Source: Pseudomonas denitrificans (nom. rej.) (GTDB lineage Bacteria > Pseudomonadota > Gammaproteobacteria > Pseudomonadales > Pseudomonadaceae). From it: 64,000 bases of DNA. Each line of letters begins with the position of its first letter. The stretch's first letter is position 1. Under the pieces are notes generated by a model. The model saw only the letters and a list, made by a program, of their open reading frames with translations, ran no database searches and had not been told where the DNA came from. The stretch covers positions 1,550,001-1,614,000 of the forward strand of contig NZ_CP043626.1 in assembly GCF_008807415.1 (NCBI RefSeq). The letters are read 5' to 3'. Shown here in pieces: positions 1-54,405 of this stretch. The translations under genes were made by a program, and so were the position numbers.

Positions 1-2368
1 CTGTTGGGCACGTAGAGCTTGAGCACGGCTTCCGGGGTCATCCGGTCGCCTTGTTCGGCCTGCACCACCACGCGCTGCTGGCGACCCGCGTTGGCGAAGT
101 CGTTGATTACCGAGGAGCCGAACGCGGTGGACAGCGCGCTGCTGATGGACTCGAAGCTGACGCCCAGGGTGCGTGCCTTCTCGCGGTCGATCTCCAGGCG
201 CAGCTGGGGAGCTTCGGCGAGGCCTTCCATCATGGCGTAGAGGATCTTCGGGTTGCCGTTGGCCTCGCCGAGCAATTGGTCGCGGGCCGCCAGCAGCGCT
301 TCGCGGCCGAGGCCGGCGCGGTCCTGCAGGCGCAGCGAGAAGCCGCCGGAGTTGCCCAGACCGTCGATCGGCGGCGGGGTCACGGCCATGATCGCGCCGT
401 CGCTGATGCCGGCGAAGCGTTCGTTGATCGCCGCGGTTTCCGCCTCCGCGGACTGCGATTTGTCACGCACGGACCAGTCCTTCAGGGTCGGGAAGGCCAG
501 CGCGGCGTTCTCGCCCATGCCGGAGAAGCTGAAGCCCATCACCAGGAAGGACGAGGCCACGGCCTCGCGGGACTTGAGGAACTGCTCCAGCTCCTGGCCG
601 GTGACGTCGGCGCGCGCACGGGTGGCGCCCGGCGGCAGCTGGATGTCGACGATCATGTAGCCCTGGTCTTCCACCGGCACGAAGGATTCCGGCAGGCGCA
701 GGTAGCTGTAGCCGAGCAGGGCGACGATGCCGGCGTAGATCAGCATGTAGCGCCCGGCACGTTTCACCAGCGCGGTGTTGAGCAGCGTGTAGCGCTCGGT
801 CAGCCGGTTGAAGCCACGGTTGAAGGCGCCGAAGAAGCCGCGCTTCTCGTGGTGACCTTCGGGGATCGGCTTGAGCAGCGTCGCGCACAGCGCCGGGGTG
901 AAGGTCAGGGCGAGGAAGCCGGAGAACAGGATCGACACCGCCAGCGACAGGGAGAACTGCTGGTAGATCACGCCTACGGAGCCAGCCATGAATGCCAGCG
1001 GCATGAACACCGCCGACAGCACCAGGGTGATGCCGATGATCGCGCCGGAGACCTGGCCCATCGCCTTGACCGTGGCGGCGGCCGGGGAGAGGCCTTCCTC
1101 GGCCATGATCCGCTCGACGTTCTCCACCACCACGATGGCGTCGTCCACCAGGATGCCGATGGCCAGCACCATGCCGAACATGGTCATCATGTTCACCGAG
1201 AAGCCCAGCAGGTACATCATCGTCAGCGTGCCGAGCAGGCACACCGGCACCACGATGGCCGGGATCAGGGTGTAGCGCACGTTCTGCAGGAACAGGAACA
1301 TCACCAGGAACACCAGCACCATGGCTTCGATCAGGGTGTGGATCACCTTCTCGATGGCCACGTCGACGAAGCGCGAGGTGTCGTAGGGCACCGAGTACTC
1401 GACGTCGTCGGGGAAGTTCACCGACAGCTCGGCCAGGCGCTCCTTCACCAGCGCGGCGGTCTGCAGCGCGTTGGCGCCGGGGAGAGCTGGATGGCACCGG
1501 CCACGGTGGGCTTGCCGTCCAGGCGCGCGGTGAAGTTGTAGCTTTCGCTGCCCACTTCCAGGCGCGCCACATCGGCCAGCTTGACGGTGGAACCATCCGG
1601 ATTGGCGCGCAGGACGATGCGGCCGAACTCCGCCGGGTCGTCCAGGGTGCCTTTCACGGCGAGAGTGGCGGTCAGCTCCTGCTCGGTGCTGCCGGGGGAG
1701 GCGCCGAAGCTGCCGGCTGGTACCTGCACGTTCTGCCCGCGAATGGCGTTGCCCACGTCATCGATGGACAGCCCGTAGCCGACCAGCTTCTGCGGGTCGA
1801 TCCACACGCGCATGGCGGCTTCGGAGGAGAAGAACTGCAGCTTGCCGACGCCTTGTACGCGGCGCAGCTCGTTGTTGATGTTGCGCGCGGCGTAGTCGCC
1901 CAGGGCGGTGGTATCGGTGCGCGCGGAGCCTTCCTTGTAGTTGAGCGCGTAGATCAGCAGGAAGCCGGCGCTGGTCTGCTCGACCTCCAGCCCTTGCGTG
2001 AGCACGGCCTGGGGCATGCGCGCCTCAGCCTTCTTCAGGCGGTTCTGCACGTCGACCTGGGCCAGCTCCGGGTTGGTGCCGGGCTGGAAGGTGACCACCA
2101 CTTCGGCCATGCCGTTGGAGTTGCTGGTGGACTCGAAGTAGAGCAGGCCCTTGGCGCCGTTGAGCTCCTCCTCGATCACGCTGGTGACCGAGTCCACCAG
2201 CACCTGCGCCGAGGCGCCGGGGTAGGTGGCGGTGACGGTGATCTGCGGCGGCGCCACGCTGGGGTACTGGGCCACCGGCAGCAGCGGGATGGCCAGCAGG
2301 CCGGCCAGGGAAATGAACAGCGCCACCACCCACGCGAAGTTGGGGCGCTTGATGAAGAACAGTGACAT
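1..2368 (-). CDS. mexD: RND efflux pump inner-membrane transporter MexD (partial, frameshifted)
   Basis: Inner-membrane proton-drug antiporter of the MexCD-OprJ tripartite pump. The N terminus MSLFFIKRPNFAWVVALFISL, the ATYPGAS and SVTSVIEEELNGAKGLLYF segments and, in the second frame, GANALQTAALVKE and the VDDAIVVVENVERIM segment of the transmembrane proton relay all match the HAE1 RND family; I recognise MexD from recall of the P. aeruginosa protein. The frame breaks at a G run (1479-1482 on +): CCCC is read where CCCCC is needed to continue LSPGAN. Beyond it the reading frame stays open to the left edge (about 789 of the usual roughly 1040 residues; last full codon ends near base 3). It starts 26 bp after mexC, same strand, as in the known operon. 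oprJ would be expected further left. As read the protein would stop early; sequencing error is the likelier cause. Confidence 0.93.
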
Positions 2369-2394
2369 GGGAATTCCTCGCGGCGATCCTCGCC

Positions 2395-3546
2395 TTACTG
2401 GCGCGACGCCTGCTGTTGCTGCTGGGCGTGACGGGCTTCGACCTTGGCGCCCGGCTGCAGGCCGGTGAGGCCGCCGACGATGACCTGGTCGCCGCTGGCC
2501 AGGCCCTGGCTGATCTGCCAGCGCGAGCCCTGCATGGCGCCGGTCTGCACCTGGCGGGTCTCGACGCGGCTGCCTTCGCCGATCACCAGCACATGGGCGG
2601 TGCCATCGGTGGCGCGCTGCACGGCGCGTTGCGGCACCAGGATGGCCTTGGCGTCGGTGCCTTGCGGGGCGGTGACGCGCACGTACATGCCCGGCAGCAG
2701 CAGGCCGTCGGCGTTGTCGAACTTGCCGCGCAGCGAAACCTGGCCGGTGCCACGGTCCACCGAGATATCGGTGAACAGCAGTTCGCCCTGGCGCTCGTAC
2801 TGGGTGCCTTCGACGCGCAGGCTCAGGGCCTGGCTCTGGCCGGCGGGGAGGTTGCCGCTCTTGAGCGCTTCACGCAGGCGCAGGGCATCGGCCACCGGCT
2901 GGGTGAAGTCGGCGTAGATCGGGTCCAACTGCTGGATGCGCGCCATCAGCGTGGCGTCGCCCTGGCCGACCAGCGCACCTTCGGTCACCAGCGCACGACC
3001 GATGCGCCCGGAAATCGGCGCCTTGACCGAGGCATAGCCCAGGTTCAGCCGTGCGGTTTCCAGGTCGGCCTGGGCCGAGCGCACCGAGGCCTGGGCGCTG
3101 CGCAGGTCGGCGGTGGCGGTGTCGAAGTCCTGCTGGCTGACCGCTTCGATCTTCACCAGTGGCTCGTAGCGCTTCACCCGTGCCTGGGCTTCCTGCTGCG
3201 CGGCCTGGGCCCTCGCCAATTCTCCTTCGGCGCGGGATACGGCGGCTTTCAACGGCGCCGGGTCGATCTGGAAGAGCAGGTCGCCGGCCTTCACGTCAGC
3301 GCCTTCCTCGAAGCGCTTCTGCATCACGATGCCCGCTACCCGCGCGCGCACTTCGGCCACGCGCATCGGCTCGATGCGCCCCGGCAACTCCGAGGTCAGG
3401 GTGAGAGGCTCGGTCGCTACCGCCACCACATCCACCGGGCGCGCCGCCTCGGCAGCTGCCGGCGGCTCGCCGGATTGTCCGCAACCCGCCAGTGCCAGCG
3501 CTGTCACCAGCGCACTGATTGTCCCTACTGCACGCAACCTGCCCAT
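2395..3546 (-). CDS. mexC: RND efflux periplasmic adaptor lipoprotein MexC
   Basis: Periplasmic membrane-fusion protein linking MexD to the outer-membrane channel. 383 aa with a lipoprotein signal: the lipobox LAGC places the acylated Cys at residue 22. The biotin-lipoyl-like and hairpin segments are visible (PGRIEPMRVAEVRARVAG, then FQIDPAPLKAAVSRAEGELA), followed by APISGRIGRALVTEGALVG and the beta-barrel part QLDPIYADFTQP. These read as near-identical to P. aeruginosa MexC rather than MexA. The gene is the first of mexCD, divergent from nfxB across 196 bp. The C terminus is Gln-rich. Expression should be repressed by NfxB through the palindrome in the intergenic region. Confidence 0.95.
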   Translation of the reverse strand: MGRLRAVGTISALVTALALAGCGQSGEPPAAAEAARPVDVVAVATEPLTLTSELPGRIEPMRVAEVRARVAGIVMQKRFEEGADVKAGDLLFQIDPAPLKAAVSRAEGELARAQAAQQEAQARVKRYEPLVKIEAVSQQDFDTATADLRSAQASVRSAQADLETARLNLGYASVKAPISGRIGRALVTEGALVGQGDATLMARIQQLDPIYADFTQPVADALRLREALKSGNLPAGQSQALSLRVEGTQYERQGELLFTDISVDRGTGQVSLRGKFDNADGLLLPGMYVRVTAPQGTDAKAILVPQRAVQRATDGTAHVLVIGEGSRVETRQVQTGAMQGSRWQISQGLASGDQVIVGGLTGLQPGAKVEARHAQQQQQASRQ

Positions 3547-3602
3547 GTTTCACCCGGGGTCTGTCTTTCTAAGAGGTTGCGTATGATCTTTCCGAAGCTA
3601 AA

Positions 3603-3622: not shown

Positions 3623-3742
3623 GTGAAACAAGTGTGAGCAAAAGTGTCATTTCCTTTGGTAGGTTGGGACTTTTTCTGCACAATGCAGCTATCCCACCCT
3701 TTCCCTTGACCCTCTGACCGGTCACCGACCCGAGGCCCGCTG

Positions 3743-10654: not shown

Positions 10655-10808
10655 GGCAGCCTCCAGGAGGCAAGGAAAAATTGCCGCCAGTCTCCGGGGA
10701 GCGTCCGTTGGTGAATGTCGGAGCCGCTGTCATCAGCTTGTAGGAGTGACTCCCGCCTTCAGGGCTGGTCTACGCTGGTAGCGGGACAAGCAAGGAGGGA
10801 GACAGGGA

Positions 10809-12529
10809 ATGAGTACCATCCTGCTGGTCGACGGCCAGCCGGTGCTCCGTGACGGGGTGCGCGCGCTGGTCAGTCGTGCCGGGCACCAGGTGATCGGCGA
10901 GGCGGACAACGGCCAGGATGCGCTGACGCTTTGCCGCGAACGGCGCCCGGACGTGGTCATCATCGAGTTGGCGATTCCGCGCCTGGGCGGCCTGGATGTG
11001 CTGCGTCGCCTGCGCGCCGCGATGGATGGCGTGCGCCTGCTGGTGTTCAGCGCGCAGGAGCGTGAGGTTTATGCCGGCCGTGCACTGCAGGCGGGCGCGG
11101 ATGCCTTCGTCGGCAAGGACGAGCCGGCCGCCGAGCTGGAGAAGGCGCTGGCCGCCGTGCTGCGCGGGCGCAGCTACTTCCCGCGCGGAGCCACGCAAGG
11201 GCCGAAGGCGACCGACGCCGATGGCCGGGCGGAGCTGGAGCGCCTCTCCGGCCGCGAGCTGACGGTTCTGGAAATGCTTGGCCGGGGGCTCTCCAATAAG
11301 GAGATTTCCGACCAGCTGAGCCTGAGTTACAAGACCATCAGCACCTACAAGATGCGCCTGCACCAGAAGCTCAATGTCAGCAGTGACGTGCAGTTGCTGC
11401 AGGTGGCGCAAAGCCTCGGGCTGCTGGCCGCGGAAGGGACGACCGTGGCGCCGGCCGATCCGCAGCTCGAGCATGAGCTGGGCCTGCTGCGCGCATTGCT
11501 CGATGCTACGCCCAACCCCATGTTCGTGCGGGATATGGATAGCCGCCTGCTGCTGTGCAACCTCCCGTTTCTCAACCGTGTCGGCAGGACTTTCGAGGAA
11601 GTCCGTGGCGGGTGTTTCGAGGATGCCCACTGGCTGTCACCATCGTTGCGCGAGCGCACGGCGCAGCGCTATCGCGAGGCGGTGCTGCGCGAGGAGCCGA
11701 TCGCCGAGGAAATATCGCTGGATGATTCGACCATCGTCGGCACCTACTTCGCCTGGTGCGTGCCGCATCGCTCCGCGGATGGGCGGATGCTGGGAATGCT
11801 CGGTGGAATGCTGTCCCTGGACGAGCGCGACGAGCAGTTGGCGGAGCTGCGTAGCGGCCTGTTCGAGAGCCGTTATCGCAGCCATCTGAAGACCAACCTG
11901 CTGGCCAGGATCGTGGCGGATTTCCGTGAACAGCTCGGTGGGCTCGATGCCTCCGTGCGGCGATCCGGCGAAGAGGACGTGGTCACGTTGGCGGACGTTG
12001 AACTGGAGGCTTCGCGCGGGGCCTGCAGTCGATGCTGGCGAGCCTGCGCCAGCTGGATGCCCTGCTCGACCTTCAGCACCATGTGGCCGAGCGGGTCAGT
12101 GAGGCGCACGAACTGGGCCGGCTCACCGAGGAAATCCTGCAGCCCCAGCGCGCGGAGCTGCAGGCCGCCGGTTACCGGCTGGATCTCGGGCCGGGGGTGC
12201 TCAGCCTGAGGAAGGTCTGGATCGACGCGGGCTACTACCGCCAGCTGCTCGAAGCCTTGATCGAGGCGGTGCCACGTAACCCGGACCACGCAACGATCCG
12301 CTTGCAGCTGAGCAACTGGCGGTATCTAAAAGGGCTCCTGCGCCTGCGTATCGAGGTGTCGCCCTGGCAGTGCCTGGCAAGGCTCGTGGACACCGGCGAG
12401 CCGGCGAGCTGGGCGCGGGCGCGGGTACAGCGGATGGTGCTGTTGTTCCATGGGGAGTTGTCGCAGCTGGAGGGCGAGCAGGGCGAAGGCCTGTTGCGCC
12501 TGGAGTTCGACCTGCCCCTGGTCATCTGA
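10809..12529 (+). CDS. REC-HTH(LuxR)-PAS-kinase-like transcriptional regulator (frameshifted)
   Basis: Probable regulator of the adjacent adhesin genes. Corrected length is 573 aa. A receiver domain (residues 1-120) is followed by a LuxR/NarL helix-turn-helix (about 145-205, LSGRELTVLEMLGRGLSNKE), a PAS domain (about 225-340, ATPNPMFVRDMDSRLLLCN), and a C-terminal part resembling a degenerate histidine-kinase dimerisation/ATPase region. The receiver has Glu53 at the phosphoacceptor position (VVIIELAIPRLGG) and only one acidic residue in the metal pocket (VDGQP), while Ser81 and Lys103 are kept. The frame breaks at GGGG 12018-12021, where a fifth G restores GLQSMLASLRQLDALLDL. RBS AAGGAGGGAGA lies upstream. 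It is paralogous to the regulator at 21.8-23.5 kb. The target genes are inferred from position. Confidence 0.85.
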
Positions 12530-14540: not shown

Positions 14541-17500
14541 CTATTTCCCTCCCTTGATTGTGCTGCTAGTGGGTTTGAGGTCTTGGGGAATCACGCTGCG
14601 CTTGGCCTCGGGGACGATGAAGTGGCCGTCCTTGAAGAGGCTGTTGGCGTAGGTGAGTACGTCGCTGAGGTCCGCCGTCGTGCTGGCCTTGCCCTGGTAG
14701 GAGCGCGGTTTGCACACCAGCTGGACGGCGTAGCTGCGCACCACGGCGGGGGACACCGAGTAGTTGGCCGAGGCCGCCGAGGGCGACTCCAGCGCGGTGC
14801 AGCGGGCGTTGCCGGGGGACTGCGCGGTCATCGGCAGCGGCGGCAGTCCGGGTTGCTCCGGCGGTACCGGGGCGAGCGGACCGGTGATGGTCAGGGCGCC
14901 GTCCCTGAAGCTGACGCTGTAGTTGTTGCCGGCGCTGAAGGCCTGGTTCTGGCTGATGGCGTAGCTGCCGGCGTCCTCGCCGGGAGCACGCAGCAGCGAG
15001 CCCTGGGCGATCGAGGCCGGGTCCTGGCCCTTGAGGCCGCTGACGCTCCAGGTCAGCGTCGGGTCAGCCGCACCGTGCATCTTGCTCTGGTTGTCGGCAG
15101 TGACCACCAGCGGGGCGGGAGTGACCTGCAGGTTGCCGTCCCTGAACACCATGCGGTAGTTGCCGCTGGTGAGGGTCACGTTGCCCTGGGTGATGGCGTA
15201 GCCCTCGGGCGTGACGTTCTCGCCGGAGATGCGCGCCAGGCTGCCGGTGGTGACCGAGGCTTGGGTGTCGCCGTGCTTCAGGCCGCTGACGCTGTAGGTG
15301 AGCGTCGGGTCGAGGTCGCCGTAGACCTTGGTCTTGTTGTCGGCGGTGACAGTCAGCTCTGCGGGAGTGATCGCCAGCTTGCCCTCGTTGAAGGTCAGGA
15401 TGTAGTTGCCATTGGCTCCTACTGTGCCCTGGCCGATGACGTAGTTGCCGACGTTCTCGCCGGCCGCCCGCGAGGCCTGGCCACTCATGACCGACTCTTT
15501 CGTGTCGCCGTTCTTCAGTCCATTCACCCGGTAGGTGAGCGCTGGATCGATCTCGCCATAGACCTTGGAGTGGTCGTCGAAGTCGATCTGCAGCGAAGCG
15601 GGCGTGATGGTGAAGGTGCCATCCTCATAGTGCAGGATGTAGTTCTGGCTGGTGCTCTGCAGGTCACCTTTTCCGATGGCGTAGCCACCGGCCTTCACAT
15701 CTTCGCCGGCCTGGCGGGCCACGTTGCCGCTGAGCACCGAGGCCTTGTCATCACTGTGTTTGAAGCCAGTGACCTGGTAGCTGAGCGTCGGGTCAATCTC
15801 GCCGTACACCTTGGTCTTGTCATCAGCCCGCACCATGAGTGTGGCTGGAGTGATGTTGAAGGTGCCGCTCTCGTAGGTCAGGATGTAGTTCTGTGAAGCC
15901 TTGCCGGTCAGGCTCAGGGTGCCCTGGTTGATGGCGTAGCCGCCTTCCTTCACATCCTCGCCGGCTTGGCGCGCCAGCTGGCCGGCCAGAGCCTCTGTCT
16001 CCTTGTCAGCGCCTTTCAGGCCAGCGACCTTGAAGGTCAGGGTCGGATCAAGTTCGCCGTAGACCTTGCCGTCGTTGTTCGCCGTGACGTTCAACTGGGC
16101 CGGAGTGATGTGCAACGTACCGTTCTCGAACTCCAGGACGTAGTTGCTGCCCTGGCCGTTGTTCAGGCCCAGGCTGCCCTGGTGGATCGTGTAACCGCCG
16201 GCCCGGACATCCTCTCCAGCCTCGCGGTCGATAGCACCTTGCAATACAGATGCCTCCGTATCGCCGTTCTTGTAGCCGGTAATCACATGGCTCAGGAGAG
16301 GATCTGCATCGCCATAGACCTTGGTTTGATCATCGGCCTTGACGGTCAACGTGGCGGGGGTGATGGCCAGGTTGCCATTGACGAAGGAGAGGACGTAGTT
16401 GCTGTCCCCACCTACCGAAAGGTTGCCTTGGCCAATGCTGTAGTTGCCAACGTTCTCGCCGGTAGCCCGAGAAAGGTCACCGCTCAGGCCCAGATTTGCT
16501 TCGCTGTCAGAACCCTTGAATCCGGTCACGGTGTAGCTGAGAGTCGGGTCTAAATCGCCATAGACCTTGGTGTGGCTGTCAGCAGTAACTTCGAGGGTGG
16601 CCGGGGTCACCGTGAAGGTGCCGTTGGCGAAGCTCAGTACGTAGTTCTGACCCTTGCCGCTGGTGAGGTCGACGTCACCCTGGCGGATGGCGTAGCTGCC
16701 GACATTCTCGCCAGCATCTCTGACCACACTGCCTGCAACCAGCTGATCCTCGGTGTCTCCGTTCCTCATGCCGGTCACGGAGTAAGTCAGTTTGGGGTCA
16801 AAGTCGCCGTAGACCTTGGTGCTGCCATCTGCAGTGACCACCAGAGTCGCCGGGGTGATCGAGAAGGTGCCTGCCTCGTAGTGCAGGACATAGTTTTTCC
16901 CGACCCCACCATTGAGGTCTACAGAGCCTTGGTTGATGCCGTAGTTGCCGACGTCCTCGCCGGCCTGGCGAACCAGGGAGCCGCTGTTCATCACATCAGC
17001 TTCGACATCATTGCCCTTCAGGCCATCGACACGGTATTTGAGGGTCGGATCAGCCTCACCATAGACCTTGGTTTTGCCATCTGCGGTGACGGTCAGCGTG
17101 GCGGGGAGATGGTGAACACGCCATCCTTGAAGTCCAGGATGTAGTTCGAGCCAACACCGCCATTGAGATCCAGAGTGCCTTGGCCGATGCCGTAGCTCCC
17201 CACGTTCTCGCCAGCCTGACGGGCCACGGAACCACCGTTGAGTACGGAAGACTCTGTGTCAGTACCCTTAAACCCAGTGACCACATGAGAGAAGGTCGGA
17301 TCGGCATCGCCATAGACCTTTCCATCGTCCTTGGCGTGTACGGTCAACTTGGCCGGGATGATTGCCAATTGGCCATCGACGAAGGTGAAGATGTAGTTGC
17401 CTGATGCTGCATCTGTCAGGCCTACGTTGCCCTGCCCAATGCCATAGTTGCCGACATTCTCCCCGGTCTGGCGGGTGAGGGTGCCACTAACCACATCAGC

Positions 17501-20500
17501 TTCCTGGTCGCCGTTTTTCAGGCCGCTGATCTTGTAGGTGAGTTCTGGGTCAACGTCTCCATAAACCTTGGTATGCGAGTTGGCCTCAACCTGCAAGGAG
17601 ACAGGAGTGATGACGAAATCTCCGCCTGTGTACTGGAGGATGTAGTTCTGCCCGGCGGCACCCGTGAGGCCGACGGTTCCCTGGTTGATGGCATAGGTTC
17701 CAGCGTTCTCACCCGCGTCGCGGACGACCTGGCCACTGACCAGATCCTCTGCCTTGTCATTTCCTTTGTTGCCGGTCACCTGATAACTCAGCTTTGGATC
17801 AAGATCGCCGTAGAACTTGGTCATGCCATCAGCTTGCACTTTCAAAGTCGCCGGAGTGACAGTGAATACCCCGTCCTCAAAGTGAAGGATGTAATTCTGC
17901 GCAAGTTCTCCAGTCATTCCAAGAGTGCCTTTGTTTATTCCATATGCACCGACGTTCTCACCAGCCTCTCTGGAAATGGAGCCACTCAGAATGCTGCTCA
18001 GACTGTCAGTTTGCGCAAGCCCGGCTACAGAATACTCAAGGAGTGGATCAGCATCACCGTAAGTCTTACCGGCATCCAGCGCACGAACTCGAAGCTCAGC
18101 TGGAGTGATGGTGATTTGACCATTCATTAACGAGACTGAGTAGTTGTGCGCTATCGAAGGATCTAGATTGAAACTTTCAATCTGATTGACATAAGACCCA
18201 ACGTTGGTTCCTTGGCCAGAGATTTTTACCGAATCATTTCTGATCGTGTCGCCATTCATGAGACCTTGAGCAGTGAACCATGGAGCGGCGTGCGACATGC
18301 CGTCGTAGACGTATTGCGCGCTACCGGCCGTGAGAGTCAGCGGAGCAGGAGTGATAGTAAGCAGGCCATCCAAAATCCGAACAGTGTAGTTTGCAGATTT
18401 CGAAGGATCTAATGTCACACCATTGATCCTGGTGACATATGATCCTACGTCTCTGCCCTGTCCCGACAGGACTACATTCTTAATAACAGCCTCGTCACCA
18501 GGGATCAGCCCATAATAAGCATAACCATTAACAGACTGAGTGGTTCCGTTATATACGTAGTATTCATTTCCAGCCTGCATGACAAGTTCGGCAGGCACTA
18601 TTTCAAGCTTCCCGTCAACGAACTTGAGGGTGTAGTTTCCACCTGGCCCGTTGTTTAAGCCCAACCCACCCTGGTTGATGGCGTATCCACCAGGAATCAC
18701 ATCCTCGCCTGCCTCCCTGGCTAGTGCTCCGCCATTTAAAATATCAGCACCAGTCTGTCCGAGCTTCTCGCCGGCTACTTCATAATCTAATGTCGGATCT
18801 ACAGTGCCATACGTTTTGGCTTTGTCTTTAGCAGTGACAGTCAATTCAGCAGGGGTGACTGTCAGTTTCCCAGTGCCACTGTTGAGTTCATATCGTTTTT
18901 GCGCAAACGACCCGGCAGCCAGGCCACCCTTGATGTCGTACTGCCCGACATTCGATTGCTGGGTAGCCGCAGTTGTGGGCTCAGACTGAGTAATGCCGGT
19001 ACGCCCGAGCATCCGGTCAACGTAGTTGTCGATGCCGCTGACTTTCGAAGCCTGGGTGTTCTCGGTCAGGGATTGCGAGAGCGGTGGGTTAGCATCGCCA
19101 TAGGTGCGACTGGCATCAGCCGGAGTGGCGGTGACAGTAGCCTTGTTCGAGGTGATCTGGACGTTCTGTGCAGTCCTGTCCTGCGTCCTGAGGAATTGCA
19201 CCTTGGCGTTTTCGTAACGGGCATCCTTGGTGGTGTTGCTGCCGTCGTTCATCAACCAGCCGATCTGCGCCAGCACCGAGGTGGTGGTGGAGCCCAGCTT
19301 GATCGCCAGTTGCTGGGAGGACTGGGTCTGCTCGTTGTACTGGATTTCCGCCTGCAGCTGGGCGCCGGGGATGTAGTCGCCGAGCACGCCCCAGTAAGGT
19401 TTATTCGAAGAGTCCGAAGTGGTGCCGGCGACTGCTACGCCACCCACGCCAGACAGGGAGAATCCCACTGGCGCGCTCACTTCTACGCCGTTGCGAAGAA
19501 CCTTGGTCAGGCCATCCTTCGTGCCATCCGGGATGAACTGCCATTGGACGTTGTTGGTGTCTCTGAAGCTGAGCCCATTGACCAGGTAGTCTGAGCTGTC
19601 CAGATAGGTGAGCAGGGTTGCGGGGCTGATGGTTCTCCCATCACGCCCGGTATAGCTGGTGGCCTCGAAGATGATGTAATCGAACTGCTGCCCGCCAGCA
19701 CTGAGGGTCACACTGCGATAGGTTTCATTGGCGTGTTGATAGGACGTGATGTTCTGCGAACCAACCACAGATAGGGTGTAGGCCTTCACCCCGGTCAATT
19801 GCTCTCCGGTGTAGGGCGCCGTGACGGTGTCGGTAGTGATAGGTTCAGCGCCAGTGGCATTTGTCTGCGTGAAGCGGAAGATACCGTTGCTGGCCTGGCC
19901 TGCCAGCGTGCCGGCGTAGTTCAGCCCGCTTTCCATGCGCACACTCGCACCGTCCAGAGCTACCTTGTCGCCGATCAGTGCGGTGTTGTTGTCCTGGAAG
20001 ATCGATGCGGTGTCGCCGGTTTTCAGCCAGGCCACGCCAGAGCCGACATCGATGATCGCGCGCTTGTTGTAAGCCGCGTCCCCCGTGGCGCTTCCGGCGT
20101 TGTCGATCAGCCGGATGTCCCCCGTGGCGCTGATGTAGAGGTTGCCATCCTTGAGCAGGATCGGCGCACGGATATTGACTGCACCACTGGTGCGGGTCTT
20201 GTCCGTCCCGGTATAGGCGGAGACCGTACCTGCGTTGCCTGAGGAAATCAGGGCGAGAGTAGATTTGCTGGTTCGCCCGTCGTTGTTAACGGTCGCGAAG
20301 TTGGTGGCAATGATCGGGGCGTTGACGTTCAGGGTGTCAGTTGCATAGATCGTCACATTGCCTTGAGCCAGGCCGTTGACGATGGCGCTGGCAGCCACCG
20401 AGCCCTGGCCGCTGCCATCGGTGTCGGTCGCCTCGATGTTGACCGTGGCCGGGTCCAGCAGCCAGGTGCCGTCAGCCGTGCTGCCCTTGGTGGAGACGTT

Positions 20501-21745
20501 CGCGTCGGAGGTGACGGTCAGCTGCTGGCCGGAGGTTTCCACCACACCGCCGCGCTGGCCACCCTTGGCGCTTGCCTGGCCGGCGAAATGGGTCTTGCCG
20601 TCGCTCCAGACCACTACCTGGCCGCCATCGGTCTTGCCGTCGGCCTTGAGCTGGGCGCCCTTGGCCACGGTCGTGTTCTTCGCCGCCTGCTCGGTTCCTT
20701 TGCCTTGATAGCTGCCACCTACCAGCACCTTGCCGCCAGAACCCTGGGTGCCGCTGGCGTCGATCTTCGCGGAGCCGGCGACATTCACCTCGTCGCCCAG
20801 CACCTTGATCTGTCCACCATTGACCCCGGTGGCGCTGATGCTGCCGGTGACGTTGGTCTTCGCCGAATTACCCAGCACCACGGTGCCGCCGTCGGTGGAG
20901 ACGGAGTCGGCCAGTACGTTGCCGCCGACGTTGATCACCGAATCCAGGTGCTTGGCCGCGCGGGCGGCGCTCATCGCAACGGTGCCGTTGCCGACGTCGA
21001 TTTCGCCGCTGTTGTGTACGCCGCCGGTGACGTCCGGGTTGACGCTGTCCTTCTCGCCGGGCTCACCGCTCACGGCGATGTTCAGCAGGCCGTCACCGTG
21101 GAAGTCCAGGGTCGCCTGCGGGCCGGTCGCCAGTTGCACCATGCCCTTGCGCGCCTGGATTACGCCGGCGTTGTTCACCTGGGCGCCTAGCAGGGCGACC
21201 ATGCCGTTGTCATGCACGGTGATGCGGCCCTGGTTGGTCACGTTGCCGGTGAGCTGGATGTCCAGCTTGCCGCTCTCGGCGAACTGTTTAGCCTGTTCCT
21301 CGGTGAGGAAGCCGGCACTGGCGACCAGGGCGCTGGAGCTGATATGTGCCTTCGGGCCGATCCAGACGCCGTTGGGGTTCACCAGGATCAGCTGGCCGTT
21401 GGAGGTCACCGCGCCATAGATCTTCGACGGGTCGCTGCCGACGACGCGGTTGAGGGTGACGGACTTGCCGTCGGGCTGGTTGAAGGTGATGCGGTTGTCT
21501 GCGCCAACGCTGAAGCGCTGCCAGTTGATGGCGGTGCGCGCGCTTTGCGTGTTCACCGTCATCTCGTTGCCGTTCTGGCTGATGCTGCCGCTGCCGGAGA
21601 TGATGCTGCCGCCCTGGGGGAGGGCGTCGCCGGCCATGACGGTCAAGGGGATGCCGGCGCCGGCCAGCGCCACGGCGATGCACAGGATGTGCAGCCGGCT
21701 GGGGCAGGTGCCGTGGGAAGAGGTGTGCGAGGGTAGGTCTTTCAT
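14541..21745 (-). CDS. Two-partner-secretion exoprotein with TPS domain and about 17 MBG repeats (frameshifted)
   Basis: Large secreted adhesin; corrected length 2401 aa. An extended signal peptide is followed by the TPS/haemagglutination domain with the NPNG motif at residues 123-126, then a beta-helix part to about residue 900. After that come roughly 17 MBG-type Ig-like repeats of about 75-85 aa, most beginning LTVTADxxTKVYGDxDPxL and ending NYVLxFxxGTFxITPA; two are a variant with YVYNG/YVYDG. The only cysteines seen outside the signal region form a C-X28-C pair near the C terminus, second Cys 57 residues from the end. That layout recalls CdrA/HMW1 adhesins retained by a C-terminal cysteine hook. 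The frame breaks at GGGG 17103-17106 (one base missing within TISPATL). The stretch about 17.8-18.9 kb is noticeably more AT-rich than its surroundings. RBS GGAG lies 7 bp before the ATG. Confidence 0.92.
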
Positions 21746-26429: not shown

Positions 26430-26509
26430 GGTGATCTCTCCGATAGTGGGGCGGGGCGGGGGTGCCCGCGTCTTGGAGGCCAATCTAGGCTGCAATCGCG
26501 ACTTGAAAA

Positions 26510-30178: not shown

Positions 30179-30223
30179 CATGGCTTCGCCTTCACGGCCG
30201 GGCCGCTGGCCTTCGTTGCGTCC

Positions 30224-30419
30224 GTAGGATGGTGTGGAGCGAAGCGATACCCATCGATCTACCGGCAACTCCGTTGATGGGTATCGCAGGCTCCACCCAT
30301 CCTACGATCGAGTGTCCAGGGTGCCGAAGTTGTGGGGCCAACGCCTGTAGGGCGCATAACACGCCAGCGTTATCCGCCGCGAAATGTCGGCGGATAACCT
30401 GTACCAGGTTATGCGCCCC
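30224..30419. repeat. Composite REP-type repeats (type A then type B)
   Basis: Type A (30224-30306) has arms GTAGGATGG/CCATCCTAC and GCGATACCCAT/ATGGGTATCGC; type B (30347-30419) has GTAGGGCGCATAAC and an inner GGCGGATAAC dyad but a changed terminal arm (GGTTATGCGCCCCG). Same order as at 5.9 kb. Together with the terminator these fill the 350-bp gap between the receptor and the thioredoxin-like gene. Confidence 0.85.
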
Positions 30420-30484
30420 GCGCCCCTGCAGATGACGGACCTATAGCCGCGGGCCGTGCCCGCGAACGCGCCGACAAGGCGCGC

Positions 30485-31608: not shown

Positions 31609-32112
31609 TCAGTGCGTCGCCGGGCTGATCAGGTAGCTCACCAGCTGCGGGTCGTCCCCCGGCTCGATGCTCTGCACCGGGCGCGGCAGGTCGGCGAACA
31701 CGGCTTTCCAGAAGGCCGCCGCCACTTCGTCCTGGGAATAGAAACGCACCAGCCAGGGGCCGGGATTGCCCAGCAGCACCTGGTTGGCCAGCGCGCGGCC
31801 TATCCCCGAGCGACGGTACTTCTTCAGCACGAACAGGTCCGATAGCTCCAGCGCGTCGATGCCCGGCAGCTCGCTGCCTTCCACCAGCAGGAAGCCGGCG
31901 ATGAAGCCGTCGGCGAGGATCAGGTTGGCGCTCCACTCCGGCTCGCTCCAGTAGCGCGCCAGGTGCTCCTCGTGGATGTAGAAGCGCCCATCGACCTCCA
32001 CGTCCTCGTCTTCCCAGTCCGACGACTCGTAGGCGTAGTACTGGTAGAGGTTGCGGATCAGGTCCTGGTGTTCAGGGCCGGTCTGCACCAGCTGGATGGA
32101 AAGATCGTTCAT
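31609..32112 (-). CDS. GNAT-family N-acetyltransferase
   Basis: 167 aa. The acetyl-CoA binding motif A is seen as LSDLFVLKKYRRSGIGRALANQ (about residues 90-112), with an acidic N-terminal region (YESSDWEDEDVEVDG) and an upstream strand GFIAGFLLVEG. The start at 32112 (MNDLSIQLV) fits the domain onset; longer in-frame starts add an unrelated extension. Acceptor substrate unknown. It is divergent from the Rrf2-type gene across 143 bp. Confidence 0.82.
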   Translation of the reverse strand: MNDLSIQLVQTGPEHQDLIRNLYQYYAYESSDWEDEDVEVDGRFYIHEEHLARYWSEPEWSANLILADGFIAGFLLVEGSELPGIDALELSDLFVLKKYRRSGIGRALANQVLLGNPGPWLVRFYSQDEVAAAFWKAVFADLPRPVQSIEPGDDPQLVSYLISPATH

Positions 32113-32255
32113 GGTCGATGGCTCGCGGGGAGACGGAAGAGGGCGCGTGAACGCCATTGTCGCCCATTCCCGTGGCAATGCCAGTGGCAGGCGGGTTTGA
32201 ACCGCGCCGCGGCGGGGTGCGATGATGCAGGCGCCTTCACCTTCGAGACCCCACC

Positions 32256-32687
32256 GTGCGAACCGACAGCCGCCTCTCGCGCATGCTCCACGTGCTGCTG
32301 CACATGGCCCGCGACGACCAGCCCGTGACCTCCGAGCGCATCGCCCAGATGCTCGGCACCAACCCGGCCGTGGTGCGGCGGACCATGGGCGGCCTGCGCG
32401 AGGCCGGCTACGTGCGCTCGGAGAAGGGCCACGGTGGCGGCTGGACGCTGGACTGCGACCTGGCCCAGGTCACGCTGCTGGATGTCTACCGCGCGGTGGG
32501 CAGCGAGCGCCTGTTCGCCATGGGCTTCGATAACGTGCACCCGGACTGCCTGGTGGAAAAGGTGGTCAACGACGCGCTGCAGGACGCCATGGAGCAGGCC
32601 ACCGCCATCCTCCTTGAACGCCTGGGCGCCGTGTCCCTGGCCGATCTCGCCGAACGCTTCACGGCGCTTTACCCGAAAGACCACTGA
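32256..32687 (+). CDS. Rrf2-family transcriptional regulator
   Basis: 143 aa with a GTG start. Winged HTH of the Rrf2 type: MLHVLLHMARDDQPVTSERIAQ, then NPAVVRRTMGGLREAGYVRSEKGHGGGW. Only one Cys is present (HPDCLVEK), so the three-Cys Fe-S ligand set of IscR/NsrR is missing and it probably senses something else. It resembles YwnA-like members. The following small membrane protein gene is 104 bp downstream and may be its target. Confidence 0.85.
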   Translation: MRTDSRLSRMLHVLLHMARDDQPVTSERIAQMLGTNPAVVRRTMGGLREAGYVRSEKGHGGGWTLDCDLAQVTLLDVYRAVGSERLFAMGFDNVHPDCLVEKVVNDALQDAMEQATAILLERLGAVSLADLAERFTALYPKDH

Positions 32688-32791
32688 TGATTCCTGGTTG
32701 AAATGCCGGTCGATGACCGGCATTGACCCTGTGCGCTCAATCAAGTTACTTTAAAAGTAACGAAAGATACCAAGCCCACCAGGAACCTCCC

Positions 32792-33194: not shown

Positions 33195-33883
33195 ATGACC
33201 CCCGCCGAACTGATGGCCCCGTTCCACGACCCCGACGCCGCCGCGCGCTACACGGAGAACCCGCCGCGCTTCGTCCCCGGCCTGTTCGACCTGCACCGCA
33301 TGGTGGCCATCCTGCTGGCCGAGCAGGCGCCGCACGACGGCCACCTGCTGGTACTCGGCGCGGGCGGCGGCATGGAGCTGCGTGCCTTCGCCGAAGCCCA
33401 GCCGGCCTGGAGCTTCACCGGCGTTGACCCCTCCGCCGAGATGCTCGCGGTGGCCGCGCAGATGCTCGGGCCGAACGCTGGACGCGCTGACCTGCTGCAG
33501 GGCTACATCGACGACGCTCCGCCGGGCCCGTTCGACGGTGGCGCCTGCCTGCTGACCCTGCATTTCCTGCCCGAGGCGGAACGCCTGCGCGTGCTGCGCG
33601 AGATCCACGCTCGGTTGAGGCCCGGTGCTGCCTTCGTCATGGCGCACCTCTGTGTGCCGCAAGGGGCTGGCGAGCGGGCGCGCTGGCTGTCGCGCTACGC
33701 CGAGTTCGCCGTCAGCTCCGGGATGGAGCCGGGCAACGCGCAGCAGGCACGCAACGCCGTGGATGCGCACCTGAACATCCTCACCCCGAGCAGGACGAAG
33801 CGCTGCTCTGGGAGGCCGGCTTCAGCCGCATCGAAGCCTTCTACGTCGGCTTCGCCTTCCGTGGCTGGGTTGCACTCGCTTGA
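33195..33883 (+). CDS. Class I SAM-dependent methyltransferase (frameshifted)
   Basis: Corrected length 229 aa. SAM-binding motif I is HLLVLGAGGGMELRAFAEAQ, motif II FTGVDPSAEML, and an acidic post-motif FDGGACLLTLHFLP follows. The C-terminal frame is lost at CCCC 33784-33787: with a fifth C it continues EQDEALLWEAGFSRIEAFYVG and ends at TGA 33881-33883. AGAAAGGA lies before the ATG. Substrate unknown; YecO/CmoA-like general fold. As read, the tail would be replaced by unrelated residues ending at 33899. Confidence 0.85.
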
Positions 33884-33932
33884 TACGGACCTCTGCTAGG
33901 CTGGCGTCCCGTTTTGCGCTGGACGCCAGTCG

Positions 33933-36399: not shown

Positions 36400-37097
36400 T
36401 CAGGTCTTCGGGCTGCCTTCCAGGCGCGGGCTCCAGTCTTCCACTGCGCCGTTCTCCAGGCGCCGCGACAGGGTGCGGCGCCAGTTCGGTGGTAGCGGCA
36501 GTTCCAGGCATTCGCGCAGCACGTCGGCGTTCACTCGCTTGTCGAACAGCACGGCAGAAAGCCGTTGCAGCGACCAGTCGGAGTAGGGGCGCTCGACCAG
36601 TTCGAGCGACGCTCCGGCGGCCACCGCGCCTTCCTCCAGCACCCGGTAGTACCAGCCGGTGCGTCCCGATTCCTGCACACGCAGGGCCATCTGCGCCACG
36701 TCGAAGCGATCGTTGAGCTTCCAGCAGGGCATGCGCCCCTGGGAAACCTCCAGCAAGGCCGTGCCGGCGCGGATGCGGTCGCCCAGGCAGAGGTTCGCTT
36801 CGGTCCAGCCGGTGGTGCTGAAGTTCTCGCCGAACGCGCCGGGCTGGCCCAGCAGCGGGTGCGCGCCCAACTCGGCGACCCAGTCCGCGTAGTGCTCGCG
36901 GGGTAGTGGTGGATGGCCTTTTCGATGCCGCCGTGAACGCGCAGGTCGCCTTGCTCGTCGCTCTCCAGCCCCAGCGTGGTCACCGCCAGAATGTTCTGGC
37001 GCGGTTGCTTGGCGATGGCGCTGCGCGAACCGGGCCGGGTGAAGGGCACGGCTTGGCCGGTGAGGAGGGCGTCGAGGGAAACGGCGGGCAGGCTCAT
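36400..37097 (-). CDS. MOSC-domain protein (YiiM-like, frameshifted)
   Basis: Corrected length 232 aa. Molybdenum-cofactor sulfurase C-terminal domain protein related to E. coli YiiM, which is involved in detoxifying N-hydroxylated compounds. The segments DLRVHGGIEKAIHHYP, GAFGENFSTTGWTEANLCLGDR and GRMPCWKLNDRFD are seen, the last holding the conserved Cys. The frame breaks at GGGG 36900-36903 (+ strand), where one more base gives HHYPREHYADWVAELGAHP. The ATG at 37097 is used; a TTG 36 bp upstream is possible. It is convergent with the DMT gene, 1 bp apart. Confidence 0.85.
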
Positions 37098-42230: not shown

Positions 42231-42233
42231 CCC

Positions 42234-47878: not shown

Positions 47879-47983
47879 GTGATGCTCCAATACGAAAGTG
47901 ATTTGACGTAAAGCGACTATCAGTCATGGGAATTGCCCGATAAATGGCGTATAGAAACAGTTGGTCGAAATCAGGGGGTTCGA

Positions 47984-48893
47984 ATGGATCGTCTGACCAG
48001 TATGGAAGTCTTTGTCCGAGCGGTGGACCTCGGGTCCTTCGCGGCGGCAGCGGATGCCCTGGAAATGTCTGCACCGATGGTGGGCAAGCACGTGCGCTTT
48101 CTCGAGGAGCGCCTGGGCGCCCAGTTGCTGATGCGCAGCACGCGCCGGCAGAGCCTGACGGAGGCGGGGCGGATTTATTACGAGCGCTGTCGCATGTTGC
48201 TGGCCGATGCGGAGGCGGCGGACATCCTTGCCGCCGGCGAGGTGGCTGAGCCGCGTGGTCGGCTGCGGGTGGCGATGCCGGTGCATTTTGGTCGGCGCTG
48301 CGTGGCGCCGGTCCTGCTGGAACTGGCGCAGCGCTATCCGCAACTGGAGCTGGACCTGCGCTTCAGTGACCGCCTGACGGACCTGGCGGAAGAGCAGATC
48401 GACCTGGCGATCCGCACGGGGAACCGCAGCCCAGGGACGGCATCATTGCGCGGCGCATCGGCCGGCAGCGCATGGTGGTGTGTGCGGCGCCAGCTTATCT
48501 GGAGCAGCACGGGCGACCGGCGAGTATCGAGGAACTGGCCGCGCATCGGGTGCTGGTCTACCACCGCTCCGGACGGATCAATCCGTGGTTGTTCCCCGTG
48601 AGGGGTTGGAGCCGGCGGAGTTCGCGCCGAGCTCCCGGCTGCGTTTCGACGACCTGGCGGCCATTGCCGACGCAGCAGTGCGCGGCATGGGGCTGGCATG
48701 GTTGCCCTACTGGCTGGTACGCGAGGTCATCGAGGCGGGGGCGCTGGAGGAGTTGCTGCCGGGGCAGCCGGGCTTCCTCTACGACGTTCATGCGACCTGG
48801 CAGCAGACCACCCAGCTGCCGCGCAAGGTGCGGCTGGCAATCGATGCGCTGGTCGAGGTGATGCCCGGCCTTGTAATGCCGGCGCAGGAGTAG
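47984..48893 (+). CDS. LysR-family transcriptional regulator (two frameshifts)
   Basis: Corrected length 303 aa. The HTH is MDRLTSMEVFVRAVDLGSF, then KHVRFLEERLGAQLLMRSTRR. The frame is lost at GGG 48434-48436 and again at CCCC 48594-48597; adding one base at each gives a continuous effector domain (MVVCAAPAYLEQHGRPASIE, NPWLFPREGLEPAEFAPSSR, VRGMGLAWLPYWLVREVIE). Divergent from the QOR gene, its probable target. Either a pseudogene or two base-calling losses; the latter fits the pattern in the window. Confidence 0.83.
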
Positions 48894-51430: not shown

Positions 51431-51797
51431 GGAGTTTTACTCACGGAAGATTGGCTTGGCACATTTTCGAAAACGACGCCCGCCATGTGAGGCAGGGGAT
51501 TCCAGTTCTTCTGTCAGTTAAATCCGACTCTGTGGGCTCGACCTGACTTCGGGTAGATGTATCCCTTCCGAAAGGAGACTGATGGTCGATCCCTTGAGGA
51601 GTTTTCATGCAGTAAATTTCTGCTCCAATCCCCATCGGTTGGCTCGCTCAGCTCTGGCATGCGCCTGCCACGCGGCACTCCGGTGAAACCCGCGGTCGAC
51701 CCTCGCGGTCCCACATGTTAGGGTCCTTGGGCTCCCTTTCACGTCCGCAACGGCTACCCACGGCCTGCGGCACGCCCTGAACATGGAGAAATGGCTC
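51431..51797. other. Divergent promoter region between EAL gene and trehalose operon
   Basis: About 365 bp with no supported gene. It must hold the otsB-GH15-otsA promoter; no clear sigma-70 or AlgU consensus was found by eye. Short open frames here lack RBS and coding character. Confidence 0.5.
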
Positions 51798-52610
51798 ATG
51801 TCACGTCCCGTACCAAGGGGACCTGTCGACACCGCCATGGTCCCGCATAGCGAGGCCTCAGCCACTGCGCTGCTGAACCTCTGGCTCAGCCGACCTCAGC
51901 AGACCGCACTGTTTCTGGATGTCGACGGAACCCTTCTGGACATCGCCGAATCTCCCGGCGCGGTCGTCGTACCGCCCGGGCTGCTCGATGCCCTCACGCA
52001 CCTGCACCGCCGACTCGACGGTGCCCTGGCCCTGATCAGCGGCCGCCCGGTCGAAGAACTCGACCGGCTCCTGCAACCCTTGCGCCTCGCCGCCAGCGGC
52101 GGCCACGGCGCGCACTGGCGCGAAAGTGGCGACCGCCCCTTGCGCCGCACCAGCAAAGACCTGCCTGCCTGCGTGCGAGTGCAGTTGAACGCCCTGGCGA
52201 ACCGGCATGTCGGTATCCAGGCCGAGGACAAGGGCAGCAGCTACGCGCTGCACTACCGCTCCGCACCTTCGCTCGCCGCAGCACTGCATGTCGAGTTGCA
52301 GGCTTTGCTGCGCGCGCCGGAGGGCGCAGGGCTGCGCTTGCTCAACGGCAAGCAGGTCTACGAAGTCGTCCCCGAAGGCGTCGACAAGGCCCAGGCGATC
52401 CAGCGGCTGCTGGGTATGCCTGGCTTCGCCGGACGGCTGCCGCTGTATATCGGCGACGACGTCACCGACGAACCCGCCATCGCGTTGATGCCGGCGCTGG
52501 GCGGCCTCGGCCTTTCGGTCGGGCGTGCCTTGCCCGGTGCCAGCGCGGTGTTCAGCGACGCGGCGGATGTCCGCGCCGCTCTGATGCAAGCAGGAGGAAT
52601 CAACCGATGA
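51798..52610 (+). CDS. otsB: Trehalose-6-phosphate phosphatase
   Basis: 270-aa HAD-superfamily phosphatase that dephosphorylates trehalose-6-phosphate, the second step of trehalose synthesis. HAD motif I is LFLDVDGTLLDIAESP, motif II LALISGRPVEEL and motif IV YIGDDVTDEPAI; the TPP-specific AASGGHGAHWRESG is present. The start at 51798 has GGAGA eight bases upstream; an ATG 15 bp earlier lacks a site. Its stop overlaps the next ATG (ATGA), so the operon is translationally coupled. It likely serves osmotic or desiccation stress. Confidence 0.93.
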   Translation: MSRPVPRGPVDTAMVPHSEASATALLNLWLSRPQQTALFLDVDGTLLDIAESPGAVVVPPGLLDALTHLHRRLDGALALISGRPVEELDRLLQPLRLAASGGHGAHWRESGDRPLRRTSKDLPACVRVQLNALANRHVGIQAEDKGSSYALHYRSAPSLAAALHVELQALLRAPEGAGLRLLNGKQVYEVVPEGVDKAQAIQRLLGMPGFAGRLPLYIGDDVTDEPAIALMPALGGLGLSVGRALPGASAVFSDAADVRAALMQAGGINR

Positions 52611-54405
52611 CGAACCGGCACGAAGGTGCTCTGGAACTGGGCCTGATCGGCAACTGCCGGGTGGCCGCGCTGGTCAATCCGCAGGCACGGCTGGTCTGGT
52701 GGTGCTACCCGAACTTCGATAGCGATCCGGCTTTTTCCCGGCTACTGGCCGGCGATGATGAGAAAGGCTTTGCCGATGTGGTGCTGGAGAACCAGGCCAG
52801 CAGCACGTCCGACTACCAACGCAACACGGCGATCATCACCACCGTGCTGCGGGACGACAACGGCGGCGCGGTGCGCATCACCGATTTCGCTCCGCGTTTC
52901 CTGCAGCACGGCCATGTCTACCGCCCTGCGCAGCTGTGCCGGTTGATCGAGCCCATCGAGGGCGTACCGAAGATCACCCTGCGTGTGCGTCCGACCCACG
53001 GCTATGGCAAGCCGAGCCAGGGCGCCACCGGCTCCAGCCATATCCGCTACCTGGAAGGTGATGAGCCGCTGCGCCTGACCACCGACGCGCCGCTGGCCTA
53101 TATCCAGCACGAAACGCCATTCGCCCTGCGCCATCCCGTGAGCCTGGTGATCGGTCTCGATGAACCGCTCGACAACGCTCCCGGCGAAGTGGTCCGCGAC
53201 TATCTCAAACGCACCCAGAACCACTGGCACGACTGGGTGCGCGGGCTGGCCATCTGCTTCGAATGGCAGCCGGTGGTGATCCGCTCGGCGATCACCCTGA
53301 AACTGTGCAATTTCGAGGACACCGGGGCGATCATCGCCGCTGCCACCACCTCCGTGCCGGAGGCGCCCGACTCGCAGCGCAACTGGGACTACCGCTATTG
53401 CTGGCTGCGCGATGCCTACTTCGTGATCCTCGCCCTCAACCGCCTGGGCGCCACGCGGACCATGGAGGGCTACATCGACTTCATCACCACCGTGGCCAGC
53501 GGTGATGCCGAGCTCAAGCCGCTGTACGGCATCATCCCCAATCAGGACCTCACCGAACGCATCGAGCCGGACCTCGCCGGCTTCCTCAATCACGCGCCGG
53601 TGCGGGTCGGCAACCAGGCGGTGGAGCAGAACCAGCATGACGTGTTCGGCTCGGTGGCGCTGGCGGTGCTGCAGAGTTTTGTCGACGAGCGCCTGCCCAA
53701 TCCCAGCAGCGAGGGCATGCTGCAACTGTTGGAGAACCTGGCCGCCAAGGCCGTGCACGCGGCGTTCGAACCCGACGCCGGCATCTGGGAATACCGCGGC
53801 CGGCAACGCATCCATACCCATTCCGCGCTGCTCTGCTGGGTCGCTTGCGACCGCGTCGGGCGCATCGCCAAACGCCTGGGCCGCAGCGAGGAAGCCGGCG
53901 GCTGGATGAACAAGGCGGCCAATCTGCGCGCACGCATCCTCGCCGAGGCCTGGAGCGAGAAGAAGCAATGTTTCACTGGCGCTTTCGGCCATGACGACCT
54001 CGATGCCAGCGTGCTGCTGATGAACGAGCTGGGCATCATCGAGGCCGATGACCCGCGGTTCATCGCCACGGTCGAGTGCATCGGTCGTGAGCTCAACGTC
54101 AACGGGCAGATGCTGCGCTATGCCGCGGCGGATGATTTCGGCGTGCCGGAAACCGCCTTCCTGGTGGTGAAGTTCTGGTACCTCGACGCGCTGGCGGCTA
54201 TCGGTCGCGTCGATGAAGCGCGCGAGTTGTTCGAGCAACTGATCGCCTCGCGCAATCGTTACGGACTGCTTTCCGAGGACCTGCACCCGGACACCGGCGA
54301 ACTCTGGGGGAACATTCCACAGACTACTCCATGGCCGGGCTGATCAATTCCGCCATGCGTCTTTCCATTGGCTGGGAGGAAGGTCTATGCCGCGCCTCGT
54401 GGTGA
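52607..54405 (+). CDS. Glycoside hydrolase family 15 protein (trehalase/glucoamylase-like, frameshifted)
   Basis: Corrected length 599 aa. Begins ELGLIGNCRVAALVNPQARLVW, the N-terminal domain of bacterial GH15, then the (alpha/alpha)6 part: WDYRYCWLRDAYFVILALNRLG, HDVFGSVALAVLQSF, DAGIWEYRGRQRIHTHSALLCW (the general acid Glu lies in WEYRG), ending TGELWGNIPQTYSMAGLINSAM. That last segment is frameshifted as read, one base missing near 54324. The restored frame ends at TGA 54403-54405, overlapping otsA by 19 bp. Placed between otsB and otsA, it may recycle trehalose or cleave an alpha-glucan. Confidence 0.88.

What the first reader, a model, noticed from the sequence alone, without database searches (positions are those of the whole stretch)
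1479..54324. Eight single-base losses, mostly in G/C runs, break seven otherwise intact genes
Frames are restored by adding one base at 1479-1482 (mexD), 12018-12021 (regulator), 17103-17106 (TPS exoprotein), 33784-33787 (methyltransferase), 36900-36903 (MOSC), 48434-48436 and 48594-48597 (LysR), and near 54324 (GH15). All eight are deletions and none is an insertion; six sit in runs of four G/C that should be five, one in a run of three that should be four, and the GH15 case is a CC read as C. Chance mutation would give insertions and substitution stops too. This looks like homopolymer under-calling, so these genes should not be recorded as pseudogenes without checking.
Basis: seen in the sequence. 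Interest (0 to 1): 0.8.

Follow-up and report, generated by a model that had tools for sequence, protein, structure and literature searches.

The report
Gene breaks from genome assembly errors
The broken genes are almost certainly sequencing mistakes: this Pseudomonas genome was assembled with many single letters missing, mostly in short runs of G or C, so the genes should not be called dead without checking the raw data.

Summary
In detail: all eight places break a reading frame. At the seven that close relatives cover, every covering relative differs from the window by one base, window shorter (30 of 30 comparisons). The eighth (regulator) rests on distant protein homologues.

The interpretation also holds, and the cause is visible outside the window. 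The chromosome is one contig whose first 23,356 bases are repeated at its end (99.38% identical). These two copies of one stretch differ at 130 places, 121 of them indels; errors pile up toward each contig end, and 72 of 75 assigned single-base deletions lose G or C. It reads as an untrimmed, under-polished long-read contig.

In 299,087 three-way aligned bases, frame switches confirmed by both comparators are 20 deletions and 0 insertions here, against 0 in one relative and 1 in the other. The only lpxD gene is split. mutS is intact, and published Pseudomonas indel spectra are insertion-biased. No raw reads were available. Verdict: an artefact of a known kind, worth flagging.

The parts
3..2368 (-).
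   Evidence: 4 of 4 covering relatives; RND_permease_1 for the intact copy of G018
10809..12529 (+). Regulator (response-regulator, LuxR-type HTH and PAS domains) with a frame break near 11996-12023
   Evidence: 5 of 11 homologue loci switch frame there; domains in the first piece, none in the second; not covered by the five close relatives
14541..21745 (-). TPS-secreted exoprotein with MBG_2 repeats, in two frames, break near 17103-17106
   Evidence: the one covering relative, G008, differs by one base; an open frame on both sides of the boundary between two fetched G008 stretches, in register; TPS and MBG_2 domains, the two pieces searched apart
33195..33899 (+). Methyltransferase-domain gene; about its last 14% is out of frame after 33784-33787
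   Evidence: 5 of 5 relatives; G008 and G010 proteins covered to 0.86 and 0.87 (the gene caller took other frames in the other three); Methyltransf_25
36406..37097 (-). MOSC / YiiM-like gene in two frames, break at 36900-36903
   Evidence: 5 of 5 relatives; MOSC and YiiM_3-alpha
47960..48890 (+). LysR-type regulator gene in three frames; breaks at 48416-48433 and 48593-48606
   Evidence: 5 of 5 relatives; HTH_1 and LysR_substrate in the intact copy of G008
51710..52610 (+).
   Evidence: 5 of 5 relatives; both comparators; T6PP (TIGR00685)
52607..54402 (+). GH15 gene; the last 26 of 599 residues are out of frame after about 54324
   Evidence: 5 of 5 relatives; Glyco_hydro_15

Best explanation
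The breaks are consensus errors of the assembly, not mutations of the living strain. The chromosome is held as a single contig with its circular overlap untrimmed and its consensus under-polished. The base caller or consensus step drops one base, most often in short G/C runs. Where read depth was thin (contig ends most of all, and perhaps some interior stretches) these losses remain and break genes. Shown: the duplicated 23.4-kb end, the indel-dominated differences between its two copies, the one-sided coding deletions, the split single-copy lpxD. Inferred: the long-read platform, low depth as the cause, and that each individual window site is an error.
For: Terminal overlap 1-23356 = 6857129-6880508 at 99.38%, 130 differences: 121 indels, 9 substitutions. 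With G018 as arbiter 120 of 130 were assigned: 75 single-base deletions, 24 single-base insertions, 12 longer indels, 9 substitutions; 72 of the 75 deletions lose G or C; errors per 2-kb bin from the copy's own contig end fall 58, 31, 19, 5, 4, 2, with one more at over 20 kb. 103 of 109 single-base indels there lie in runs of two or more, against 44% of bases. Interior: 20 deletions and 0 insertions confirmed by both comparators in 299,087 bases, relatives 0 and 1. Only copy of lpxD split between residues 1-175 and 174-324 of the family. mutS intact. Start-end overlap of thousands of bases is described for Canu and NextDenovo assemblies (passages of PMC6966772); a MinION assembly named Pss508 had mostly false deletions among its indel errors, most often after runs of four to five (abstract and section 6 of PMC12007338).
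Against: No raw reads were seen. Errors at the contig ends include insertions (24 of 99 assigned single-base indels), whereas the interior breaks confirmed by both comparators include none, so the spectra are not identical. By gene calls alone the genic excess of deletions (25 to 4) over intergenic (18 to 11) was not significant, p = 0.07; it is only after protein confirmation (20 to 0, p = 0.0014). Three insertions were supported by one of two comparators (window 4379, window 62734, L188 652); they sit at gene starts and look like start-site differences. G005 has one such break by both comparators. The window itself has one-base insertions against its relatives at 26457, 37477 and 51438, none confirmed as breaking a gene. 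The GH15 break is on a single base, not in a run, and it and the methyltransferase break lie near 3' ends, where a survey expects real indels more than errors (passage of PMC3711429). rpoB, ftsZ, tsf and atpG are intact, which is no surprise at about 5 errors per 100 kb.
Confidence: 0.96

Rival explanations
1. The strain is a mismatch-repair mutator, and slippage in G/C runs really broke these genes.
For: Slippage also prefers G:C runs: 104 of 108 indels in MMR-deficient P. aeruginosa lines (passage of PMC4702332).
Against: In those lines insertions were 3.32 times commoner than deletions, and MMR-deficient P. fluorescens has an insertion bias too (passage of PMC4316635); 20 of 20 deletions would then have a chance of about 2e-13. 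mutS is one open frame of 870 codons without stops. lpxD could hardly be lost. A mutator cannot explain two disagreeing copies graded toward the contig ends. mutL and uvrD were not examined.
Confidence: 0.01
2. Ordinary recent pseudogenes under relaxed selection.
For: Several broken genes are of dispensable kinds (regulators, exoprotein, efflux, GH15); two breaks are near 3' ends.
Against: 20 deletions to 0 insertions, relatives 0 and 1; in wild-type P. aeruginosa lines +1 repeat-unit changes were commoner than -1 (8 indels in all). Of 40 single-base deletions and 17 insertions private to G000, 18 and 0 lie in DNA whose third-position substitutions stay in phase on both sides, as in genes under selection. 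No excess of substitution stops by a crude count: 7 of 222 genes in G000 against 14 of 303 in G005. lpxD is broken too.
Confidence: 0.02
3. Programmed frameshifting or phase-variable tracts.
For: A run of three or more lies within 3 bases at 17 of 20 confirmed sites, against 26% of random sites.
Against: Where relatives cover the site and their gene was called, they encode the protein in one frame; no run near a site is longer than six in the deposited sequence; the genes are unrelated.
Confidence: 0.005

Closest known systems
Gene-fragmenting indel errors of long-read assemblies (Kastor, PMC12007338; abstract and section 6 read)
   Same: Mostly false deletions among the indel errors, most often after runs of four to five, inflating pseudogene counts (assembly Pss508; that this is Pseudomonas syringae is recalled from the name)
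   Different: There A/T runs gave most errors although the genome is 59% GC; here 72 of 75 assigned deletions lose G or C. The platform is unknown here
Untrimmed start-end overlap of circular contigs (PMC6966772; passages read)
   Same: Sequence of the contig start repeated at its end, thousands of bases long
   Different: Here the two copies also differ by about 0.6%, which makes the error spectrum readable
Singleton frameshifted genes confirmed by BLASTp (GeneTack survey, PMC3711429; passages read)
   Same: Frame breaks in one genome, intact in others; the survey expects these to be sequencing errors rather than genuine indels
   Different: Here an internal duplicate gives evidence of error that does not rest on other species alone

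Membership tests
Long-read consensus indel error | Single-base indels far outnumber substitutions where one stretch was assembled twice | tested here: met
   121 indels (109 of one base) and 9 substitutions
Long-read consensus indel error | Errors concentrate in homopolymer runs | tested here: met
   103 of 109 in runs of two or more against 44% of bases; interior 12 of 20 near runs of four or more against 5.4% of random sites
Long-read consensus indel error | Deletion bias that related assemblies do not show | tested here: met
   20 deletions, 0 insertions by both comparators; relatives 0 and 1. By gene calls alone the contrast with intergenic DNA was p = 0.07
Long-read consensus indel error | Raw reads disagree with the consensus | not testable with these tools
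   no reads held
Untrimmed circular contig | Contig end repeats contig start up to the very first and last base | tested here: met
   1-23356 matches 6857129-6880508 of 6880508
Mismatch-repair mutator genome | Lost mismatch-repair gene | tested here: inconclusive
   mutS intact; mutL and uvrD not tested
Mismatch-repair mutator genome | Insertion-biased indels | tested here: not met
   0 insertions of 20 against 3.32 insertions per deletion published (passage)
Genuine pseudogene set | Only dispensable genes are hit | tested here: not met
   the only lpxD copy is split; its indispensability is from general knowledge and one passage
Programmed frameshift | Split frame conserved in relatives | tested here: not met
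   single frames in the relatives whose gene was called

The most novel reading that the evidence does not exclude
A minority of the nine window breaks, most likely those near the 3' ends of the GH15 and methyltransferase genes, are real recent losses in the strain, hidden among assembly errors; the excess in this window over the rest of the sample (p = 0.015) would then be partly biological.
Probability: 0.1. Interest if true: 0.2.

Novelty: not a real feature. Interest (0 to 1): 0.2.

Why it matters
By extrapolation from a non-random sample, this chromosome lacks roughly 350 to 460 single bases inside genes (13 confirmed in 257,559 bases outside the window, 20 in 299,087 overall). Its pseudogene list, and any claim that it lost efflux, regulatory or lipid A genes, is therefore unreliable. 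The untrimmed 23.4-kb overlap also holds genes twice. The duplicate end is a useful free test: any circular contig left untrimmed carries its own error measurement.

Tried and rejected
A first count that demanded identical gap positions in all relatives found none of the eight sites; this was a flaw of the test, because gaps in runs are placed differently, and it was replaced by net-shift tests. A gene-level pairwise count with a simple GC3 gene caller gave, in the sample part, 46 of 190 and 43 of 183 broken genes in G000 against 23 of 276 and 23 of 268 in the control pairs, and in the essential clusters 6 of 93 and 6 of 66 against 1 of 66 and 1 of 65; it has many false gene starts, so it served only as a lead. 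(by gene calls: genic 25 deletions and 4 insertions, ambiguous 7 and 7, intergenic 18 and 11) was filtered by protein evidence: of 79 small events tested in G000, 53 had no protein support and 6 had it from one comparator only (3 deletions, 3 insertions). In G018, 8 kb were fetched twice (L110 and L146 overlap), so one of its events was tested twice. Gene-called 'breaks' at window 33187, 62734, 4379 and 31612-32702 were set aside as start-site or antisense artefacts by judgement. A gene-level count near the contig join found 7 of 196 genes with a frame switch and none of the 16 within 20 kb of the join; I read this as each gene being matched to its better copy. A search for palindromic 4- and 6-base motifs at the sites, as a sign of methylation-linked error, found nothing clear (CATG 4 against 1.7 expected, GGCC 8 against 4.4, CCGG 7 against 4.0, of 20 sites). 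Run length at interior sites measured in relatives gave 11 of 20 outside any run; gap placement makes this unreliable, and it was replaced by the run-near-site test. G037, labelled same species, shares no close DNA with a 9-kb piece of the window (best match 70% over 470 bases) and could not serve. A paper search on platform bias listed one paper, not read; one on P. nitroreducens genomes was seen as a listing only.

Full report
What was checked. The window is positions 1550001-1614000 of a single-contig genome of 6,880,508 bases. Its nearest relatives are of the Pseudomonas nitroreducens group. Five relatives were aligned to the window: G018 (contig length equals that of L004, Pseudomonas sp. 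21), G008 (L001, P. nitroreducens 381H), G006 (L003, P. nicosulfuronedens), G010 (L002, Pseudomonas sp. CAN1), and G005, an unnamed single-contig genome.

The eight places. At seven of the eight, every relative that covers the place differs from the window by one base, window shorter: 4 of 4, 1 of 1, and 5 of 5 at each of the other five, 30 of 30 in all. Proteins of the relatives show the matching frame switches in the RND permease, MOSC, LysR (two) and GH15 genes, and a truncated match in the methyltransferase for the two relatives whose gene was called. The exoprotein is supported by G008 alone, in which an open frame runs across the place. The regulator lies in a stretch that none of the five relatives shares; 5 of 11 homologue loci show its two halves in two frames. 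GH15 loses only its last 26 residues from the frame. A ninth break, near 51765 in a trehalose-phosphatase gene, was missed.

Is it more than chance? In a three-way comparison of G000, G018 and G005 (extended to 299,087 aligned bases), indels of one or two bases private to one genome were tested at protein level: does the protein of each comparator switch frame there? G000: 79 tested, 20 single-base deletions confirmed by both comparators, 0 insertions; 3 deletions and 3 insertions by one comparator only; 53 without support. G018: 16 tested, 0 by both, 4 by one. G005: 38 tested, 1 deletion by both, 1 by one. A phase-of-substitution test on 214,572 of these bases passed 18 of 40 private single-base deletions and 0 of 17 insertions in G000, 0 of 5 and 0 of 5 in G018, and 0 of 10 and 0 of 6 in G005. 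By gene calls alone the contrast between genes and intergenic DNA was weaker (25:4 against 18:11, p = 0.07); with protein confirmation it is 20:0 against 18:11, p = 0.0014. G000 is more distant from the other two than they are from each other, which can explain its extra intergenic indels but not a 20:0 coding ratio. 12 of the 20 sites lie within three bases of a run of at least four, against 5.4% of random sites.

The direct evidence. The near-origin part of the chromosome was compared with G018, and frame events piled up at both ends of the contig. The reason is that the contig repeats itself: 1-23356 and 6857129-6880508 are the same stretch at 99.38%. I read this as an untrimmed circular overlap, so that one genomic stretch was assembled twice. 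The copies differ at 130 places, 121 indels and 9 substitutions. G018 decides which copy is wrong for 120 of 130. Errors fall steeply with distance from the copy's own contig end: 58, 31, 19, 5, 4 and 2 per 2-kb bin, and one beyond 20 kb. 75 are single-base deletions, 24 single-base insertions; 72 of the 75 deletions lose G or C. 103 of 109 single-base indels lie in runs of two or more. This assembly therefore drops G and C in short runs; that the copies disagree is shown inside the genome, and the relative is needed only to say which copy is wrong. A biological 23-kb duplication ending exactly at the first and last base of a contig, with differences graded toward both ends, is not credible.

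A gene expected to be indispensable. In the fetched clusters around rpoB, ftsZ, tsf and atpG, four genes carry single-base deletions in G000 by both comparators: lpxD in the tsf cluster, and an ATP synthase subunit I gene, a MarC-family gene and an amidase gene near atpG; a KinB-type kinase gene there is supported by one comparator. lpxD is found once in G000, as two pieces in different frames (family residues 1-175 and 174-324), and whole in both relatives; the next match in G000 is far weaker (42.6 bits) and has counterparts in the same place in the relatives. lpxD is named among 25 genes discussed by an essential-gene screen of P. aeruginosa (one passage of PMC3922391); a review says that seven lipid A enzymes matched candidate essential genes (passage of PMC9006449). 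That LpxD is needed for life in Pseudomonas is otherwise general knowledge. rpoB, ftsZ, tsf, atpG and mutS are intact, which is no surprise at this error density.

Rivals. Slippage in a mutator would also favour G/C runs, but MMR-deficient P. aeruginosa gives 3.32 insertions per deletion and MMR-deficient P. fluorescens is insertion-biased (passages of PMC4702332 and PMC4316635). Ordinary decay would hardly give 20:0 or break lpxD. Programmed frameshifting does not fit single frames in relatives.

Size of the problem. 20 per 299,087 bases extrapolates to about 459 (95% interval 280-708) in the chromosome; without the window, 13 per 257,559, about 346 (184-592). The sample is not random, and the window was chosen because breaks were seen in it; its density (7 in 41,528 three-way bases) is higher than elsewhere, p = 0.015.

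Known or new. Both ingredients are known: start-end overlap in uncircularised long-read contigs (passages of PMC6966772) and false deletions at homopolymers that fragment genes (abstract and section 6 of PMC12007338).

Noticed in passing
G000:C1:1-23356 and 6857129-6880508 (L213-L216), outside the window: Untrimmed circular overlap of 23.4 kb with 130 differences; genes there are held twice, which may add to the 2.13 contamination given for this genome.
   Followed up: yes
L190 about 15719 (G000:C1:303719): The only lpxD gene is split by a single-base deletion.
   Followed up: yes
L129 about 12468, L130 about 1724, L131 about 11077 and 12616, L132 about 8183, L133 about 1766, L144 about 1941, 5146 and 8075: Further genes broken in the same way by both comparators: a MexE-type adaptor, a TonB receptor, a helicase, a FAN1-type nuclease, two TauD-family genes, an MMPL-family gene, an ABC permease and an FAD-binding protein, named from intact relatives.
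   Followed up: partly
window 30223-30430: Short sequence that recurs dozens of times over the chromosome in both orientations (73 matches, itself included, for the query that holds it), like a REP-type intergenic repeat.
   Followed up: no
window 14541-21745: TPS exoprotein with many MBG_2 repeats, partly in a low-GC stretch (0.56 at 16-20 kb) that of the five relatives only G008 shares at DNA level.
   Followed up: no
window 10715-10797: The first 14 residues of the regulator homologue in L244 match the window in another frame than the rest, a possible further break upstream or a different start.
   Followed up: no
G037: Labelled same species as G000, yet its best match to 9 kb of the window is 70% over 470 bases; the label or an assignment looks wrong, or the region is strain-specific.
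   Followed up: no
L131 about 15897: Gene whose copy in G018 has an eCIS_core domain; one-base difference against both relatives, not confirmed by the protein-junction test.
   Followed up: no
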